Assembly: GCA_046760705.1 (NCBI GenBank)
Contig: JBHIER010000254.1
Span: 1-5,383, forward strand
DNA length: 5,383 bases
Direction of reading: 5' to 3'
From: JBHIER01 sp046760705 [NCBI: bacterium]
Lineage (GTDB): Bacteria; JBHIER01; G020348925
Numbering within the stretch: position 1 is the stretch's first letter; each line of letters opens with the position of its first letter. The translations under genes and the position numbers were made by a program. Of the stretch, positions 1-5,383 are shown one piece after another. The notes beneath the pieces were generated by a model. It searched no databases. It had not been told where the DNA came from and saw nothing but the letters and a program-made list of their open reading frames with translations.

Positions 1-60
1 TTTTGTCTCGATCTCTCCCGTAGTTAGGTTGATGTAGGCAATCTTTCGGTTCAACGCCAT
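1..60 (-). CDS. Aldehyde:ferredoxin oxidoreductase family protein, N-terminal 20 codons only
   Basis: Only the first 20 codons lie in the window; the gene continues leftwards past base 1. The start is an ATG at 60-58, preceded by AGGAGG (74-69) with 8 bases of spacing. The peptide begins MALNRKIAYINL and continues TTGEIE. This matches the opening beta-strand pattern of aldehyde:ferredoxin oxidoreductases (a '+K I x x (V/I) (N/D) L T T G E I' signature at the extreme N-terminus). Members of that family are tungsten or molybdenum pterin enzymes with one [4Fe-4S] cluster; they oxidise aldehydes with ferredoxin, and relatives such as BamB act in benzoyl-CoA reduction. The substrate cannot be told from 20 residues. 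The gene follows the zinc-ribbon gene by 17 bases, so the two are probably cotranscribed. The family call is inference from a short but characteristic stretch. Confidence 0.68.
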   Translation of the reverse strand, partial: MALNRKIAYINLTTGEIETK

Positions 61-77
61 CGGATCGTCCTCCTCGC

Positions 78-269
78 TCAGGTGGCAATGCGGTCTCGAA
101 TTCTATCCCAGACCGGCCCCCGAATTTTGGCTGTCTTTGGATAGGGCCACGATATGCGCCATTCCATCTCACACTTCGGGCAGGTTGCCTTCTCCGCTCT
201 GGCCGAGGGCCTGAATCTCGTAAAACAGTTCAAACACCGGACCTCGCCGTCCCTTGTTCCACGCCTCAA
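78..269 (-). CDS. Small zinc-ribbon protein (63 aa) preceding an AOR-type gene
   Basis: A 63-residue basic protein with two CxxC knuckles: C12-x2-C15 (CLNC) and C30-x2-C33 (CPKC), 14 residues apart. This is the classic spacing of a treble-clef or rubredoxin-like zinc ribbon. The tail from about residue 36 (EWRISWPYPKTAKIRGPVW) is rich in Trp, Pro and Lys/Arg and looks constrained rather than random. The start is TTG at 269, chosen because a near-perfect AAGGAGGT lies 4 bases upstream; no ATG or GTG in this frame fits. The stop is 17 bases before the ATG of the AOR-type gene, so it sits first in a two-gene unit. It has no catalytic motif. Possible roles are a small partner, electron-transfer or maturation factor of the oxidoreductase, or a nucleic-acid-binding regulator of it. 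I do not recognise a named family. Confidence 0.82.
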   Translation of the reverse strand: MRRGTRDGEVRCLNCFTRFRPSARAEKATCPKCEMEWRISWPYPKTAKIRGPVWDRIRDRIAT

Positions 270-273
270 AATG

Positions 274-281
274 ACCTCCTT
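274..281 (-). promoter_or_regulatory. Shine-Dalgarno site fixing the TTG start of the zinc-ribbon gene
   Basis: AAGGAGGT on the minus strand, 4 bases from the TTG at 269-267. It is the strongest ribosome binding site in the window and is the main reason to accept the rare TTG start. No convincing -35/-10 pair was found between here and 352. Confidence 0.8.
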
Positions 282-349
282 GCTATTCAGAGGGCTGCAG
301 TCAAAATGAAATTCTGGAAGAGTTCAAAACAGAACTGCTAAGACAGATC

Positions 350-368
350 AAATCAAGCCCTCTCTGCC
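350..368 (-). repeat. Direct repeat copy 1, upstream of the zinc-ribbon/AOR unit
   Basis: On the minus strand this reads GGCAGAGAGGGCTTGATTT. It matches the copy at 1227-1245 (GACAGAAAGGGCTTGATTT) at 17 of 19 positions, with 12 consecutive identical bases. It ends 80 bases before the TTG start at 269; the other copy ends 89 bases before the queH start. It could be a shared promoter element or regulator site, or a chance match. Confidence 0.45.
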
Positions 369-484
369 GGTTGCAACGTTGGAGAAACCAACCTTGATCG
401 CACTGGAGCGATCTCTTTGATCCTAACCAAGACGATAGGTTGGCCCTCTTCAGCCTGTTCCTGAGCCAATTTCTTAACCCACAC
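353..484 (-). CDS. Uncertain small open reading frame between queH and the zinc-ribbon gene
   Basis: In the 300-base gap after queH one minus-strand frame is open from 601 to a TGA at 355-353 (82 sense codons), overlapping the end of queH in another frame. It has no ATG. The most usable start is GTG at 484, preceded by GAGGAG with 6 bases of spacing, which would give 43 residues starting VWVKKLAQEQAEEG and containing QPIVLVRIKEIAPVR. The composition (alternating charged and hydrophobic residues, few rare residues) looks like real protein, and so does the part upstream of the GTG (FEPRCSQKAYPRDCNEEEY). I do not recognise it. It may be a true small gene, the 3' end of a gene whose 5' end has been lost, or chance. 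The apparent Shine-Dalgarno could simply be Glu codons of the longer frame. Confidence 0.25.
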   Translation of the reverse strand: MWVKKLAQEQAEEGQPIVLVRIKEIAPVRSRLVSPTLQPAERA

Positions 485-570
485 GTTATACTCCTCTTCA
501 TTGCAGTCTCGTGGATATGCCTTTTGCGAACATCGTGGCTCAAAGGCAAAACGGACTCCGTAACCAACGC

Positions 571-1137
571 CTATCCTCGTCGGATGCGTTCTCTCTCTTC
601 TCTACTATACAAACACCCACAGTAATCCTGTCGATAGAGCCAGTATTTTTTACTCAGCTCCACAGTCTTTTTGAATCCGTTTCTCTTTTTGAAATCGGTC
701 CTGAGAAAATTCACTCCTGACTGAACCTCAATCTCCCCTCCGATACGGTTTATGACAACTGCGTTCTTGTGCGGACTGATAGTTAAGGTAGTAGTGAAAT
801 TGTTAAACTCATTCTCTTTGGCGAATCGAGCTGCCCTCTCCAACCTCATTCGAAAACAGATCTGGCAGCGTGGGCCGCCTTCTGACTCCTTTTCCAGACC
901 CTCGGTTAAGGTGAACCAGCGATCTGCATCGTATTCGCCCCAGAAGAGTTCGACCCCAAGTTTCTCGGCCAGCTTTTTCATCTCCATCAGCCGAAGCTCG
1001 TACTCCTCCTCAGGATGGATGTTGGGGTTATAAAAATAACCCGTCACCTGATAGTCCTGCTGCAATAGATCGATAACATGCGGTGAACACCCCGCGCAGC
1101 ACACATGGACCAGCATCTTTGAACGGTGTGGACTCAT
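571..1137 (-). CDS. queH: Epoxyqueuosine reductase QueH
   Basis: A 188-residue protein of the QueH (formerly DUF208) family, the non-orthologous replacement for cobalamin-dependent QueG. It reduces epoxyqueuosine to queuosine in the wobble position of tRNAs with GUN anticodons, in the cytoplasm. The metal-ligand cysteines of the family are in place: adjacent C13-C14 in HVCCAGCSPH near the N-terminus, C91 and C94 in GPRCQICFRMRL, and C173 and C175 in DYCGCLYS near the C-terminus. The stretch YFYNPNIHPEEEYELR (about 35-50) and FTTTLTISPHKN (about 114-125) are also typical. Length is normal for the family. The start at 1137 has GGAAGGG four bases upstream; the internal Met8 has no ribosome binding site. 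No other queuosine genes are visible here. The gene lies 106 bases downstream of the 254-residue protein, with a possible promoter of its own. Confidence 0.94.
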   Translation of the reverse strand: MSPHRSKMLVHVCCAGCSPHVIDLLQQDYQVTGYFYNPNIHPEEEYELRLMEMKKLAEKLGVELFWGEYDADRWFTLTEGLEKESEGGPRCQICFRMRLERAARFAKENEFNNFTTTLTISPHKNAVVINRIGGEIEVQSGVNFLRTDFKKRNGFKKTVELSKKYWLYRQDYCGCLYSREERERIRRG

Positions 1138-1233: not shown

Positions 1234-1245
1234 GCCCTTTCTGTC
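1227..1245 (-). repeat. Direct repeat copy 2, upstream of queH
   Basis: This is the second copy of the 19-base motif at 350-368 (17 of 19 identical). It starts within the stop codon of the 254-residue gene and ends 89 bases before the queH ATG, nearly the same distance as copy 1 has to its gene. It contains the proposed -35 box TTGATT. Confidence 0.45.
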
Positions 1246-2008
1246 ATCGGAGTGAGTTGTCAGAGTCTGCCAAACGCTGAGCCTTCTTCACCCCTTCTAT
1301 GATGCTGATGGCCTTTTTCACTTCGCCCTCGTCTCCGGAGACAGCCAGGGTGACCGCCCCCTGGGAGTCGGCCAGACCGCCGGAGGCGATGTGGAGGACA
1401 TCGACATCGGCCAGAAGTTTGAGGGCATCGATCTCGGTCACGGCCCGGCCGTACATGAGAGGCATCAGCCCGACCTTTCTGCCAGTAGCGTAATCGAGGG
1501 TCTCAAGCCCGCATCGGTTCGAAGCCTCTCTCACCGAGGGAATGAGCTTCTCCAGCCCCACCGGAATGATGAGGTGGGAACCGCGGGCTGCCAGTATCCC
1601 GAGGGCAGTTCCGATGGTCCCTCCAAATTCGTTCTGCAGGAGGATACCGACGTTCCCTTCAGGATCGATGGCGTTCGCCCCCTTGATGAAGACATCGTTC
1701 CGACCGAAGGCTGCTAAGGCATCCTTGGGGTGGACATCAACGCTCCTTCCATCCTTAAGAACAACAGGCTTCATTCGCTTCTCGCCTTCTGAGAGCCGGA
1801 GTTCGCCGCCGGTGATGTATCCCGCGATGTACCGCTCACATTCAATTCTCTCACCCAAGAGCTCCTCGGCCACATACGCACAGGTGCTGCCCCAACCCAC
1901 GATAATGGTTCCCCTCTCCGAGGCCCTTTTCACTTCCGGAAGCGCAGCGATCCCTTTCGCAATGAGTCGCTTCGATTCTTTTGGAGTGAGCACAAATAAC
2001 GCTTTCAT
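1244..2008 (-). CDS. Conserved-looking protein of unknown function with an RpiA/NagB-like (ISOCOT) pattern
   Basis: A 254-residue soluble protein without signal peptide or membrane segments. The pattern TIIVGWGSTCAYVAEELL (34-51) resembles the 'G-x-G-S-T' phosphate-binding turn and following helix of ribose-5-phosphate isomerase A. NDVFIKGANAIDPEGNVG (104-121) resembles the RpiA 'D-x-V-x-x-G-A-D-E-x-D' active-site strand and turn. This suggests the NagB/RpiA/CoA-transferase-like (ISOCOT) fold that also covers LUD-domain proteins. The catalytic RpiA residues are not conserved (ANAID in place of ADEID), so isomerase activity is not predicted. Other Gly-rich segments are GGTIGTALGILAARG (129-143) and ASGGLADSQGAV (208-219). 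The start at 2008 has an AGGGAG 9 bases upstream. The gene lies 136 bases after lipA and 106 before queH. I believe proteins like this occur in archaea and anaerobic bacteria, but the substrate is unknown to me. Confidence 0.88.
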   Translation of the reverse strand: MKALFVLTPKESKRLIAKGIAALPEVKRASERGTIIVGWGSTCAYVAEELLGERIECERYIAGYITGGELRLSEGEKRMKPVVLKDGRSVDVHPKDALAAFGRNDVFIKGANAIDPEGNVGILLQNEFGGTIGTALGILAARGSHLIIPVGLEKLIPSVREASNRCGLETLDYATGRKVGLMPLMYGRAVTEIDALKLLADVDVLHIASGGLADSQGAVTLAVSGDEGEVKKAISIIEGVKKAQRLADSDNSLR

Positions 2009-3845: not shown

Positions 3846-4145
3846 TATGTGAGAGTTGCTCAGTGTCATACAGGTTGTGGTACAAGGAACCTCGAAATTG
3901 AGCGGGCGAGTAGCCGCTTCATTCTCCATCCTTCACCTATATGTTTTCCTCATCGGCGAAAGCCCGCTCATACTCAATTCTATGAAGGCCCACAGAAGAG
4001 ATAGGAGCATTGCTTCTTTTCCGCTGATCGCAGATGCTTCAGAACCAGTCCAGGGCGGTGCACGCATCCGTCTTCTTGGGAATAAATCCTGGAGACAGGC
4101 CGTAATGAGATGGTTGCAGACTTAGGACAACGATGCTGTAGAACA
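3846..4145 (+). other. Long leader or gene-free stretch before the DUF6599 gene
   Basis: About 300 bases between the promoter at 3818-3845 and the chosen start at 4146. The plus-strand frame open at 3856-4125 has no ribosome binding site and no recognisable pattern, so I do not call it a gene. A perfect 9-base inverted repeat, TGAGCGGGC (3899-3907) and GCCCGCTCA (3962-3970), could fold in the RNA with a 54-base loop. I see no riboswitch consensus and no terminator. Confidence 0.35.
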
Positions 4146-5042
4146 ATGTCCTTAAGAAAAGTACTCACACTATTATTTTGCGCGGCTGCTTTGACAACAG
4201 CAACATGCAGAAGAGAGACCTCGATGAAGATGAGTGAACTTGTGCCCCGTGAGATGCACGGGTGGAAAGCTCAAGACGAAGTAGAAACATACACCCGGGA
4301 CACCATCTTTGAATACATAAACGGGGCAGGCGAGGTGTATCGCTTATACGGGTTTCGGGAGTTGGTGGTCTGTCGCTTTGTCAAGGCTGACGAGCCGAAC
4401 CTCGTCGTTGAGCTATTCGACATGGGCTCGGCTGAGGACGCCTTCGGGGTCTTCACCCACGGGCGCCAGGCCGAAGAGGCAGGCATCGGACAGGGCTCTG
4501 AGCACAGAGGAAGCTTCTTGTGCTTCTGGAAGAATAAGTACTTCGTGTGCATCTATGCGGAAGGGGAAACCCAAGATGCTCAGGAGGCGGTGCCCGCTCT
4601 GGGCAGAGCCGTCGCCGGGGCTATCAAAGCCACAGGTTCAAAACCCAAAATACTTGACTATTTGCCAAAGGAGGGCCTGATTGAGAGAAGTGTTCGCTTC
4701 TTCCACACGCATGTCTCCCTCAACTATCACTACTTCGTCGCAGACTCCAACATTCTCAACCTTGACAATGACACGGATGCCGTGCTGGCTAAGTATCACC
4801 AGCCCGAGGGCAAATCCTACCTTCTGCTTGTGAGTTACCAGAATGAGGACCAAGCAAGGGCAGCCTGCGAGCGTTTCGTCGAGGCATACATGCCCGATGC
4901 AATGCAAACTCAGATCTGTCAAACTGAGGACGGCACATGGACGGCGGCGAATGTGGAGAGGGATGTTGTGGTAGTCGTTTTCGATGCCCCCACGAGAGAT
5001 GGGGCAAAAGGTCTGCTTGAGGCGGTACAAAGTGCTCGTTGA
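4146..5042 (+). CDS. Exported DUF6599-family protein of unknown function
   Basis: With the start at 4146 the protein has 298 residues. The first 21 form a signal peptide: MSLRK, a hydrophobic core VLTLLFCAAAL, then TTATC. Cys21 could be a lipidation site, but Thr at -1 and -3 makes a poor lipobox, so a secreted protein or an unusual lipoprotein are both possible. DUF6599 hallmarks are IFEYINGAGEVYRLYGF (54-70) and VELFDMGSAEDAFGVF (88-103). The rest alternates beta-strands and helices (YLLLVSYQNEDQARAACERF, 225-244; VVVVVFD, 274-280). A longer frame starts at ATG 4110, but its 12 extra residues would precede and weaken the signal peptide; neither start has a good Shine-Dalgarno. The function is unknown. 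The gene is on the strand opposite to the lipA block and probably uses the promoter at 3818-3845. Confidence 0.85.
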   Translation: MSLRKVLTLLFCAAALTTATCRRETSMKMSELVPREMHGWKAQDEVETYTRDTIFEYINGAGEVYRLYGFRELVVCRFVKADEPNLVVELFDMGSAEDAFGVFTHGRQAEEAGIGQGSEHRGSFLCFWKNKYFVCIYAEGETQDAQEAVPALGRAVAGAIKATGSKPKILDYLPKEGLIERSVRFFHTHVSLNYHYFVADSNILNLDNDTDAVLAKYHQPEGKSYLLLVSYQNEDQARAACERFVEAYMPDAMQTQICQTEDGTWTAANVERDVVVVVFDAPTRDGAKGLLEAVQSAR

Positions 5043-5045
5043 TCG

Positions 5046-5083
5046 GTTGTCGTTGTCGATGCTGGGAAGGAGGCTCGAGGCTC
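5046..5083 (+). repeat. Short tandem duplications downstream of the DUF6599 gene
   Basis: GTTGTC is duplicated in tandem (5046-5051, 5052-5057), and GAGGCTC likewise (5070-5076, 5077-5083). Together with the nearby CGATGCTGG this looks like a worn version of the 'ctcgatgctggatactcgatgctg' low-complexity runs often seen next to four-helix-bundle genes. The link is from memory and tentative. Confidence 0.3.
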
Positions 5084-5134
5084 GAAACACTGGGCCATGA
5101 ACCGATAATGATTTACGGGCTGGAGGATAGAGGC

Positions 5135-5383
5135 GTGAAGCACATTGGTGAGGAACCCACTAAGAAACCGATCCGTAGTTTCAAGGATCTGGAGGTTTAT
5201 CAGAATACATAGAATGCTTCAGTTGAAGTTATCACCAAGGGGTACTCTAAAAAGCACCAAAAGAAGGGGTTTCAGAAATACCTGGATGATGCTATGACTG
5301 AAAGCAACGAGATGATCGTTTCCTTGAGCCACGGAAGAGACCTGTATTCGCGATTTGTCAAGCCTAAACTCTGCGATGGGCTC
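5135..5383 (+). pseudogene. Four-helix-bundle (S23/IVP-like) protein gene, broken, 3' end beyond the window
   Basis: The frame from GTG 5135 (GGAGG 8 bases upstream; an in-frame ATG also lies at 5108) reads IRSFKDLEVYQNT, then TAG (5210-5212), then NASVEVITK directly followed by GYSKKHQKKGFQKYLDDAM, TESNEMIVSLSHGRDLY and so on to the window end. These are the successive parts of the four-helix-bundle family (TIGR02436-like, related to the proteins encoded in 23S rRNA intervening sequences). The usual residue between Thr and Asn is Tyr, so TAG is a one-base change from TAT or TAC. About 30 residues of helices 1-2, normally between the 'V-x-x-K' and 'G-Y-x-K-K-H' parts, are missing in frame near 5239-5240. 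The remaining 57 codons are open. The family is about 120 residues long and its function is poorly known. Confidence 0.82.

What the first reader, a model, noticed from the sequence alone, without database searches (positions are those of the whole stretch)
1..281. Zinc-ribbon miniprotein tightly linked to an AOR-type oxidoreductase
The sequence shows a 63-residue protein with two CxxC knuckles and a distinctive Trp/Pro-rich tail. It is translated from a TTG start with a near-perfect ribosome binding site, 17 bases upstream of an AOR-like start. Tungsten/molybdenum AORs need cofactor insertion and electron partners, and small partners are not always known. If this pair recurs, the miniprotein could be a dedicated maturation factor, partner subunit or regulator. 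A TTG start with a strong Shine-Dalgarno also makes it easy to miss in annotation.
Basis: partly seen in the sequence, partly recalled or inferred. Interest (0 to 1): 0.6.

Follow-up and report, generated by a model that had tools for sequence, protein, structure and literature searches.

The report
Zinc-ribbon partner of a tungsten enzyme
A tiny zinc-finger-like protein, matching no curated protein family, sits beside the gene of one branch of tungsten-type oxidoreductases in nearly every genome checked, so it is probably a dedicated assembly helper or small subunit of that enzyme.

Summary
Window 78-269(-) encodes a 63-aa protein with CX2C...CX2C, a TTG start and a strong ribosome binding site. 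It ends 17 bases before an ATG whose first 20 codons match the AOR of locus L001 at 18/20. L001 has the same LipA-unknown-QueH-mini-AOR order and a complete AFOR_N/AFOR_C protein.

The pair recurs. In 395 genomes of one phylum, 54 of 55 strong homologs lie on the same strand near AOR sequence (47 directly upstream, 7 downstream in the cluster); the exception is a degenerate copy. None of 6 weak hits does. In reverse, 45 of 48 close AORs have the mini, a 46th a truncated one at a contig edge; two lie near contig ends. None of 35 more distant AORs fetched does, but two further distant AORs carry a divergent version. Mini and AOR distances correlate at r = 0.91.

The family has invariant Arg/Trp/Pro residues on a predicted zinc ribbon plus hairpin; the window protein meets no Pfam or NCBIfam cut-off. 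Half the members have CX4C in the first knuckle, against a rubredoxin-type carrier. I favour an assembly factor narrowly over a stable subunit; the data do not decide. My searches found no description in print.

The parts
78..269 (-). AOR-linked zinc-ribbon miniprotein, 63 aa, TTG start 267-269
   Evidence: homologs; start supported by the aligned ATG of L001
274..281 (-). Shine-Dalgarno AAGGAGGT of the miniprotein
   Evidence: read from the sequence
69..75 (-). Shine-Dalgarno GAGGAGG of the AOR-family gene, in the 17-base gap
   Evidence: read from the sequence
1..60 (-). first 20 codons of an AOR-family (WorL-type) oxidoreductase; runs off the window
   Evidence: 18/20 identical to the complete AOR of L001, which meets AFOR_N and AFOR_C
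571..1137 (-). QueH, upstream neighbour in both the window and L001 (in L001 it overlaps the mini by ATGA); context only
   Evidence: PF02677 230.7 bits
1244..2008 (-). conserved protein of unknown function, syntenic in L001; context only
   Evidence: no Pfam match at 0.01; similar protein read in L001
2145..3104 (-). lipoyl synthase LipA, syntenic in L001; context only
   Evidence: TIGR00510 384 bits, cut-off 310.25

Best explanation
The miniprotein is a dedicated partner of the catalytic large subunit (WorL), or of the WorL-WorS pair, of one clade of AOR-family tungsten oxidoreductases. Most likely, by a narrow margin, it works as an enzyme-specific assembly or maturation factor. The zinc ribbon is a rigid scaffold (inferred), and the conserved hairpin with R38, W41 and the R-G-P-V-W motif (50-54) docks on apo-WorL while the bis-pyranopterin tungsten cofactor and/or the [4Fe-4S] cluster is inserted, or while WorS joins (inferred). 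Being translated just before WorL would let it bind the nascent large subunit (inferred). Shown here: the gene pair, its recurrence, its clade specificity, its co-diversification and the conserved motif. Not shown: physical binding, bound metal, tungsten in these enzymes, and the step it serves.
For: 54 of 55 strong homologs lie on the same strand near AOR sequence (47 directly upstream, 7 downstream in the cluster); 0 of 6 weak hits do. 45 of 48 close AORs carry it and a 46th has a truncated copy at a contig edge. Mini-AOR distance correlation r = 0.908 over 56 pairs, 0 of 2000 permutations as high. In two genomes with two pairs (G005, G224) each mini's nearest relatives broadly follow those of its own AOR. 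A second, distant AOR lineage (L067, L068) has its own divergent mini. The gene can move within the cluster (7 of 54) or apart from the AOR (G808), easier for a factor than for a fixed subunit. It is far commoner beside these AORs than the pterin gene WorX (13 of 50, 15 of 50 by the recount). The one strong homolog without an AOR nearby, L053, has lost the conserved W41 and W54. 27 of 55 members have CX4C in the first knuckle, against a redox carrier. A 2023 review states that no enzyme-specific chaperone has been found for the aldehyde oxidoreductase family although the enzyme's cluster suggests one (PMC10609526, passage).
Against: A stable small subunit would give nearly the same genomic pattern. 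AOR and WorS correlate about as well (r = 0.895 on 37 loci), and on recount every mini-linked AOR with enough flank has a WorS nearby (50 of 50), so the mini is never seen serving a lone WorL in that set. Distant AORs of the same phylum do without it (0 of 35 fetched), so it is not a general need for tungsten cofactor insertion. In G402 an intact mini persists beside a remnant of about 50 AOR residues. No family comparison links it to a known maturation protein above cut-off.
Confidence: 0.4

Rival explanations
1. It is a stable small structural subunit of the holoenzyme, for example bridging the large subunit and the ferredoxin-like WorS subunit or capping the cofactor.
For: Near-universal presence in the clade; co-diversification as tight as that of WorS with AOR; WorS accompanies 50 of 50 mini-linked AORs with enough flank but only 15 of 28 mini-less ones. 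My check raised this rival: one search had counted 47 of 50, and a recount found the three missing WorS genes.
Against: It lies 0.8-3 kb behind the AOR in 7 of 54 loci and is unlinked in one genome. WorS also occurs without it (15 of 28). As far as I recall solved AOR-family structures contain no such chain; the family profile found only weak zinc-ribbon matches in the PDB sequences (best E 0.096), but no structure of this clade is known to me.
Confidence: 0.35
2. It is a small electron carrier (rubredoxin-like, iron bound to the four cysteines) serving the AOR.
For: Four invariant cysteines in two knuckles.
Against: 27 of 55 members have CX4C in the first knuckle, unlike rubredoxins (their CX2C pattern is recalled); the clusters already carry a ferredoxin-like WorS (50 of 50; 43 of 46 rows with two intact CX2CX2CX3C motifs, median 16 Cys); rubredoxin potentials are far above the aldehyde/acid couple (recalled).
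Confidence: 0.06
3. It is a regulator (nucleic-acid-binding zinc ribbon) of the AOR operon.
For: Small zinc ribbons can bind nucleic acids; weak profile resemblance to MJ0042 and a Zn-ribbon RNA-binding family.
Against: 29 of 50 clusters have an IclR-type regulator within 5 kb (three members checked against Pfam); conserved Trp and Gly-Pro residues look like a protein contact; co-diversification with the enzyme.
Confidence: 0.05
4. It helps substrate handling, like the small zinc-ribbon carrier LysW that presents substrates to its enzymes.
For: LysW gives the top structural matches (Z 4.8, 44 aligned, rmsd 1.8); the AOR clade has an unusual active site.
Against: Parkin zinc domains score almost the same (Z 4.5), so this may be only a common fold; only 5 of 55 members end in Glu (LysW's C-terminal Glu is recalled) and tails vary.
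Confidence: 0.05

Closest known systems
FdhE (formate dehydrogenase accessory protein)
   Same: CxxC-rich accessory protein dedicated to the catalytic subunit of one kind of Mo/W enzyme and encoded near it (PMC10609526, passages)
   Different: FdhE has four CX2C motifs and serves periplasmic formate dehydrogenases; the mini has two knuckles, half of the first ones CX4C, and no FdhE profile match was listed
WorX / MoaD-like protein beside AOR genes
   Same: small accessory gene recurrently beside AOR-family genes, thought to act in pterin cofactor supply (PMC13328260, passages; PMC1779556, passages)
   Different: ThiS-like, not a zinc ribbon (Pfam ThiS above cut-off for L005, just below for L002); near 13 to 15 of 50 mini-linked AORs
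WorS / AorA ferredoxin-like small subunit
   Same: small partner of WorL, co-diversifies with it and is near 50 of 50 mini-linked AORs
   Different: larger (most rows 160-200 aa) with [4Fe-4S] motifs; also near 15 of 28 mini-less AORs
HypA zinc-ribbon metallochaperone
   Same: small zinc ribbon acting in metalloenzyme maturation; sub-threshold profile similarity (15.6 bits, cut-off 28.9)
   Different: shorter, lacks HypA's N-terminal nickel site (recalled) and is linked to AOR
LysW amino-group carrier protein
   Same: zinc ribbon of about 54 aa with a similar predicted fold
   Different: different pathway; 8-20% identity in the structural alignments, Z under 5

Membership tests
AOR/WOR large subunit (gene beyond base 1) | AFOR_N and AFOR_C domains | tested here: inconclusive
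   met by the syntenic L001 protein; the window holds only 20 codons, 18/20 identical to L001
AOR/WOR large subunit (clade linked to the mini) | [4Fe-4S] cysteines equivalent to PfAOR C288, C291, C295, C494 | tested here: met
   all four present in the L001 protein and invariant in the nine-row alignment A2; the C494 column is C in 54 of 54
Aldehyde-oxidising WORs | T243, E313, Y427 and H448 of PfAOR conserved (stated in PMC13328260) | tested here: not met
   T and H kept in 54 of 54; E313 is T in 53 of 54 and Y427 is S in 53 of 54; the 35 mini-less AORs also often lack E313 (E in 14)
Class II WOR | WorS encoded beside WorL (PMC13328260) | tested here: inconclusive
   met by 50 of 50 mini-linked AORs with enough flank; the window is cut off before it
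Rubredoxin | CX2C in both knuckles (recalled) | tested here: not met
   the window's copy meets it, but 27 of 55 family members have CX4C in the first knuckle
Rubredoxin | iron bound, redox active | not testable with these tools
   needs purified protein
FdhE | four CX2C motifs (PMC10609526) | tested here: not met
   two knuckles only
Zn_ribbon_4 / MJ0042 zinc finger | curated score cut-off | tested here: not met
   window protein 19.7 bits against 30.3 and 18.4 against 20.9
HypA | curated score cut-off | tested here: not met
   window protein 15.6 against 28.9 in Pfam
LysW | shared fold beyond a generic zinc ribbon | tested here: inconclusive
   Z 4.8 against 4.5 for parkin domains
Tungsten-enzyme maturation factor | needed for cofactor insertion, absent from the final enzyme | not testable with these tools
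   needs deletion and purification

The most novel reading that the evidence does not exclude
The miniprotein is the first dedicated maturation factor known for an AOR-family tungsten enzyme: a zinc-ribbon protein whose R38/W41/RGPVW hairpin holds apo-WorL, or the bis-pyranopterin itself, during tungsten cofactor insertion, in a clade whose altered active site suggests an undescribed reaction.
Probability: 0.33. Interest if true: 0.75.

Novelty: new variant of a known kind. Interest (0 to 1): 0.6.

Why it matters
How AOR-family enzymes receive their tungsten cofactor is open: a 2023 review says no enzyme-specific chaperone has been found for them although one is suggested (PMC10609526, passage), and a 2026 classification of more than 4,000 WORs has no word beginning with zinc, ribbon or rubredoxin in its main text (PMC13328260). 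A protein of roughly 60-100 residues that follows one WOR clade almost without exception gives a directly testable candidate for a maturation factor or an overlooked subunit, and a practical hint for expressing these enzymes in other hosts: co-express it. It is easy to miss in annotation, as the window's copy meets no curated family cut-off and starts with TTG.

Tried and rejected
Chance or false ORF: rejected, since homologs at 58-81% identity exist with invariant residues across 55 rows. Generic zinc ribbon with accidental neighbours: rejected, since weak hits of the survey do not lie by AOR (0 of 6); the 18 other weak-only genomes in the phylum of G009 were not examined for neighbours. Natural fusion of mini and AOR: none seen in the 71 loci. 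Hidden divergent minis near mini-less AORs: a motif scan of small same-strand ORFs within 2.5 kb found only two ferredoxins. Structure search: no Foldseek match at E of 0.001 or better and no Z of 5 or more, so the fold says only zinc ribbon plus hairpin. AOR positions specific to the clade (36 found, 30 of them beyond residue 217) did not point to a docking surface. Plasmid collection: no match. The literature search on glycyl-radical succinate synthase small subunits gave nothing useful. One search had missed three WorS genes (L007, L083, L084), found by tblastn; I lowered the maturation reading from 0.45 to 0.40 (its boldest form from 0.35 to 0.33) and raised the subunit reading from 0.30 to 0.35 for that reason. 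Limits: one search scored only up to three AOR candidates per genome and at most 15 mini candidates, so absences are less certain than presences; WorX counts differ between methods (mini-less AORs: 4 of 28, 0 of 28); the AOR tree is a quick one without the mixture model and has long branches.

Full report
What is there. Window 78-269(-) is a 63-codon ORF with TTG at 267-269, AAGGAGGT at 274-281 and two cysteine knuckles. Seventeen bases after its stop, with GAGGAGG in between, an ATG at 58-60 opens a frame that runs off the window; its 20 residues are MALNRKIAYINLTTGEIETK. No genome is held for the window, so the AOR could not be read directly.

Relatives. A scan of genome contigs gave 9 loci with homologs at 58-81% identity. 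In 8 of 9 the mini lies upstream of an AOR-like protein of about 630-645 residues as the next gene; in L008 the AOR is about 2 kb upstream in the same cluster, with WorX-like (own HMM; no Pfam match) and FAD-dependent genes between. L001 has the window's order LipA, unknown, QueH, mini, AOR, with QueH and mini overlapping by ATGA. Its AOR meets both AFOR families, is closest among solved structures to P. furiosus AOR by sequence (395 bits), and its first residues match the window's at 18/20.

Survey. With profile A1, 57 of 395 genomes of the phylum of G003 had a match at E of 0.001 or better. Fetching the 61 places (G003 was already held as L003) and scoring them locally gave 55 strong and 6 weak hits. 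Of the 55, 54 have AOR sequence on the same strand: 47 with the AOR starting within 350 bases behind the mini and 7 with the mini 0.8-3 kb behind the AOR. In 7 of the 54 the AOR is partial: five reach a contig end, while in L080 (G402) only about 50 N-terminal residues remain and in L065 (G262) the AOR breaks off, with a change of frame, after about 110-120 residues. The one without AOR, L053, is degenerate. None of the 6 weak hits is near an AOR.

Reverse direction. With AOR profile A2 on the same genomes, 48 AORs score above 900 bits; 45 have a mini. Of the other three, L108 begins inside a truncated mini at a contig edge, L106 ends 2 kb behind the AOR (sister loci carry the mini 2.2-3 kb behind) and L107 ends about 300 bases before it. 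Below 740 bits, 0 of 35 fetched AORs have one; I set aside L116 and L122, which look like C-terminal halves of clade AORs, and did not fetch G302:C60. Two further AORs near 640 bits (L067, L068) have a divergent mini with APVSW. On a quick tree of 100 AORs the label needs 2 changes once L106-L108 are left out, 5 with them counted as mini-less.

Other phyla. Phylum of G008 (a gammaproteobacterial MAG by its title): one strong hit in 398, G008 itself, and one weak. Phylum of G006: 1 of 140 at E of 1e-7, G006 itself. Phylum of G009: 20 of 246 at 0.001, two of them strong, G009 and G808; in G808 the mini is not beside the clade AOR, which is on another contig. Phylum of G001: only one genome held. 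Phylum of G002 gave nearly the same genomes as that of G003 (17 of 99).

Co-diversification. Over 56 pairs, mini and AOR distances correlate at 0.908, with no permutation of 2000 as high (maximum 0.325). On 37 loci with WorS downstream, mini-AOR 0.927, mini-WorS 0.868, AOR-WorS 0.895. Common descent of linked genes contributes to this, so it does not prove contact.

Anatomy of the family. Across 55 rows R11, C12, C15, R18, C30, C33, W41, P52 and W54 (window numbering) are invariant, and P31, R38, R50, G51, V53 nearly so. The first knuckle is CX2C in 28 and CX4C in 27; 51 have GPVW, 2 GPAW, 2 APVSW. AlphaFold2 gives mean pLDDT 80.5 and pTM 0.59 with strands 27-29, 36-43 and 46-52: I read this as a zinc ribbon continued by a hairpin that carries the conserved Arg/Trp and Gly-Pro residues. 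No solved structure matches well. No AOR-related family is among the Pfam and NCBIfam families listed for the 55 rows, and the window protein stays under the cut-off of each family listed for it.

The partner enzyme. Mapped on PfAOR, the L001 protein keeps the four cluster cysteines, T243 and H448. E313 is Thr in 53 of 54 clade AORs and Tyr427 is Ser in 53 of 54; in L001 the bridging-iron residues E332 and H383 are Ala and Leu. E313 and Y427 are given as little-varying in most aldehyde-oxidising WORs (PMC13328260, section read). The mini-less AORs also vary there (E in 14 of 35, Y in 3), so the loss is not unique. A substrate other than a simple aldehyde is possible. Near mini-linked AORs with enough flank, WorS is found in 50 of 50 (47 in the first count), WorX in 13 to 15, a WorN-like flavoprotein in 6 to 7 and an IclR regulator in 29. 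Near mini-less AORs WorS is found in 15 of 28. The names rest on Pfam scans of a few members and on the classes of PMC13328260.

Interpretation. A dedicated partner of this enzyme is well supported (about 0.9). Between a maturation factor and a stable subunit the genomic evidence cannot choose. I prefer maturation by a small margin: the gene can move to the end of the cluster or away from it, it is unlikely to be a redox carrier, and a dedicated chaperone has been expected but not found for this family (PMC10609526, passage). The constant presence of WorS beside it keeps the subunit reading close. The closest working analogue is FdhE (passages), but it is not a member: it has two knuckles, not four.

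Literature. Searches for AOR or tungsten terms with zinc ribbon, zinc finger or rubredoxin-like found one paper, on MoaD-like proteins (PMC1779556, passages read), which describes MoaD beside AOR; in the passages shown, its zinc ribbon is in another protein. Of PMC13328260 I read the abstract and outline, sections 5, 11 and 19 and found passages; of PMC6365974, PMC10609526 and PMC13197769, passages only. Supplementary tables were not available to me, so a neighbour listed there without comment cannot be excluded.

Noticed in passing
AORs of the mini-linked clade (54 rows): The clade lacks PfAOR's active-site E313 (Thr in 53 of 54) and Y427 (Ser in 53 of 54) but has an invariant Glu eight residues after the E313 position (54 of 54); its substrate may be unusual.
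   Followed up: partly
L053 / L183 (G241:C67): A decayed mini without W41 and W54 and without any AOR on its contig, in a genome with an intact pair elsewhere.
   Followed up: partly
L080/L182 (G402) and L065 (G262): Intact mini beside an AOR that is reduced to an N-terminal remnant.
   Followed up: partly
L180 and L184 (G808): Clade AOR and mini both present but on different contigs.
   Followed up: partly
window 1244-2008 (-): 254-aa protein with no Pfam or NCBIfam match, kept between QueH and LipA in both the window and L001.
   Followed up: no
window 270-570: About 300 bases between QueH and the mini that are absent in L001, where the two genes overlap.
   Followed up: no
window 4110-5042 (+): DUF6599 protein (118.7 bits), on the opposite strand to the other genes.
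   Followed up: no
window 5039-5383 (+): A frame interrupted by a stop at 5210-5212 that may be a broken small gene; no Pfam match above cut-off for either piece.
   Followed up: partly
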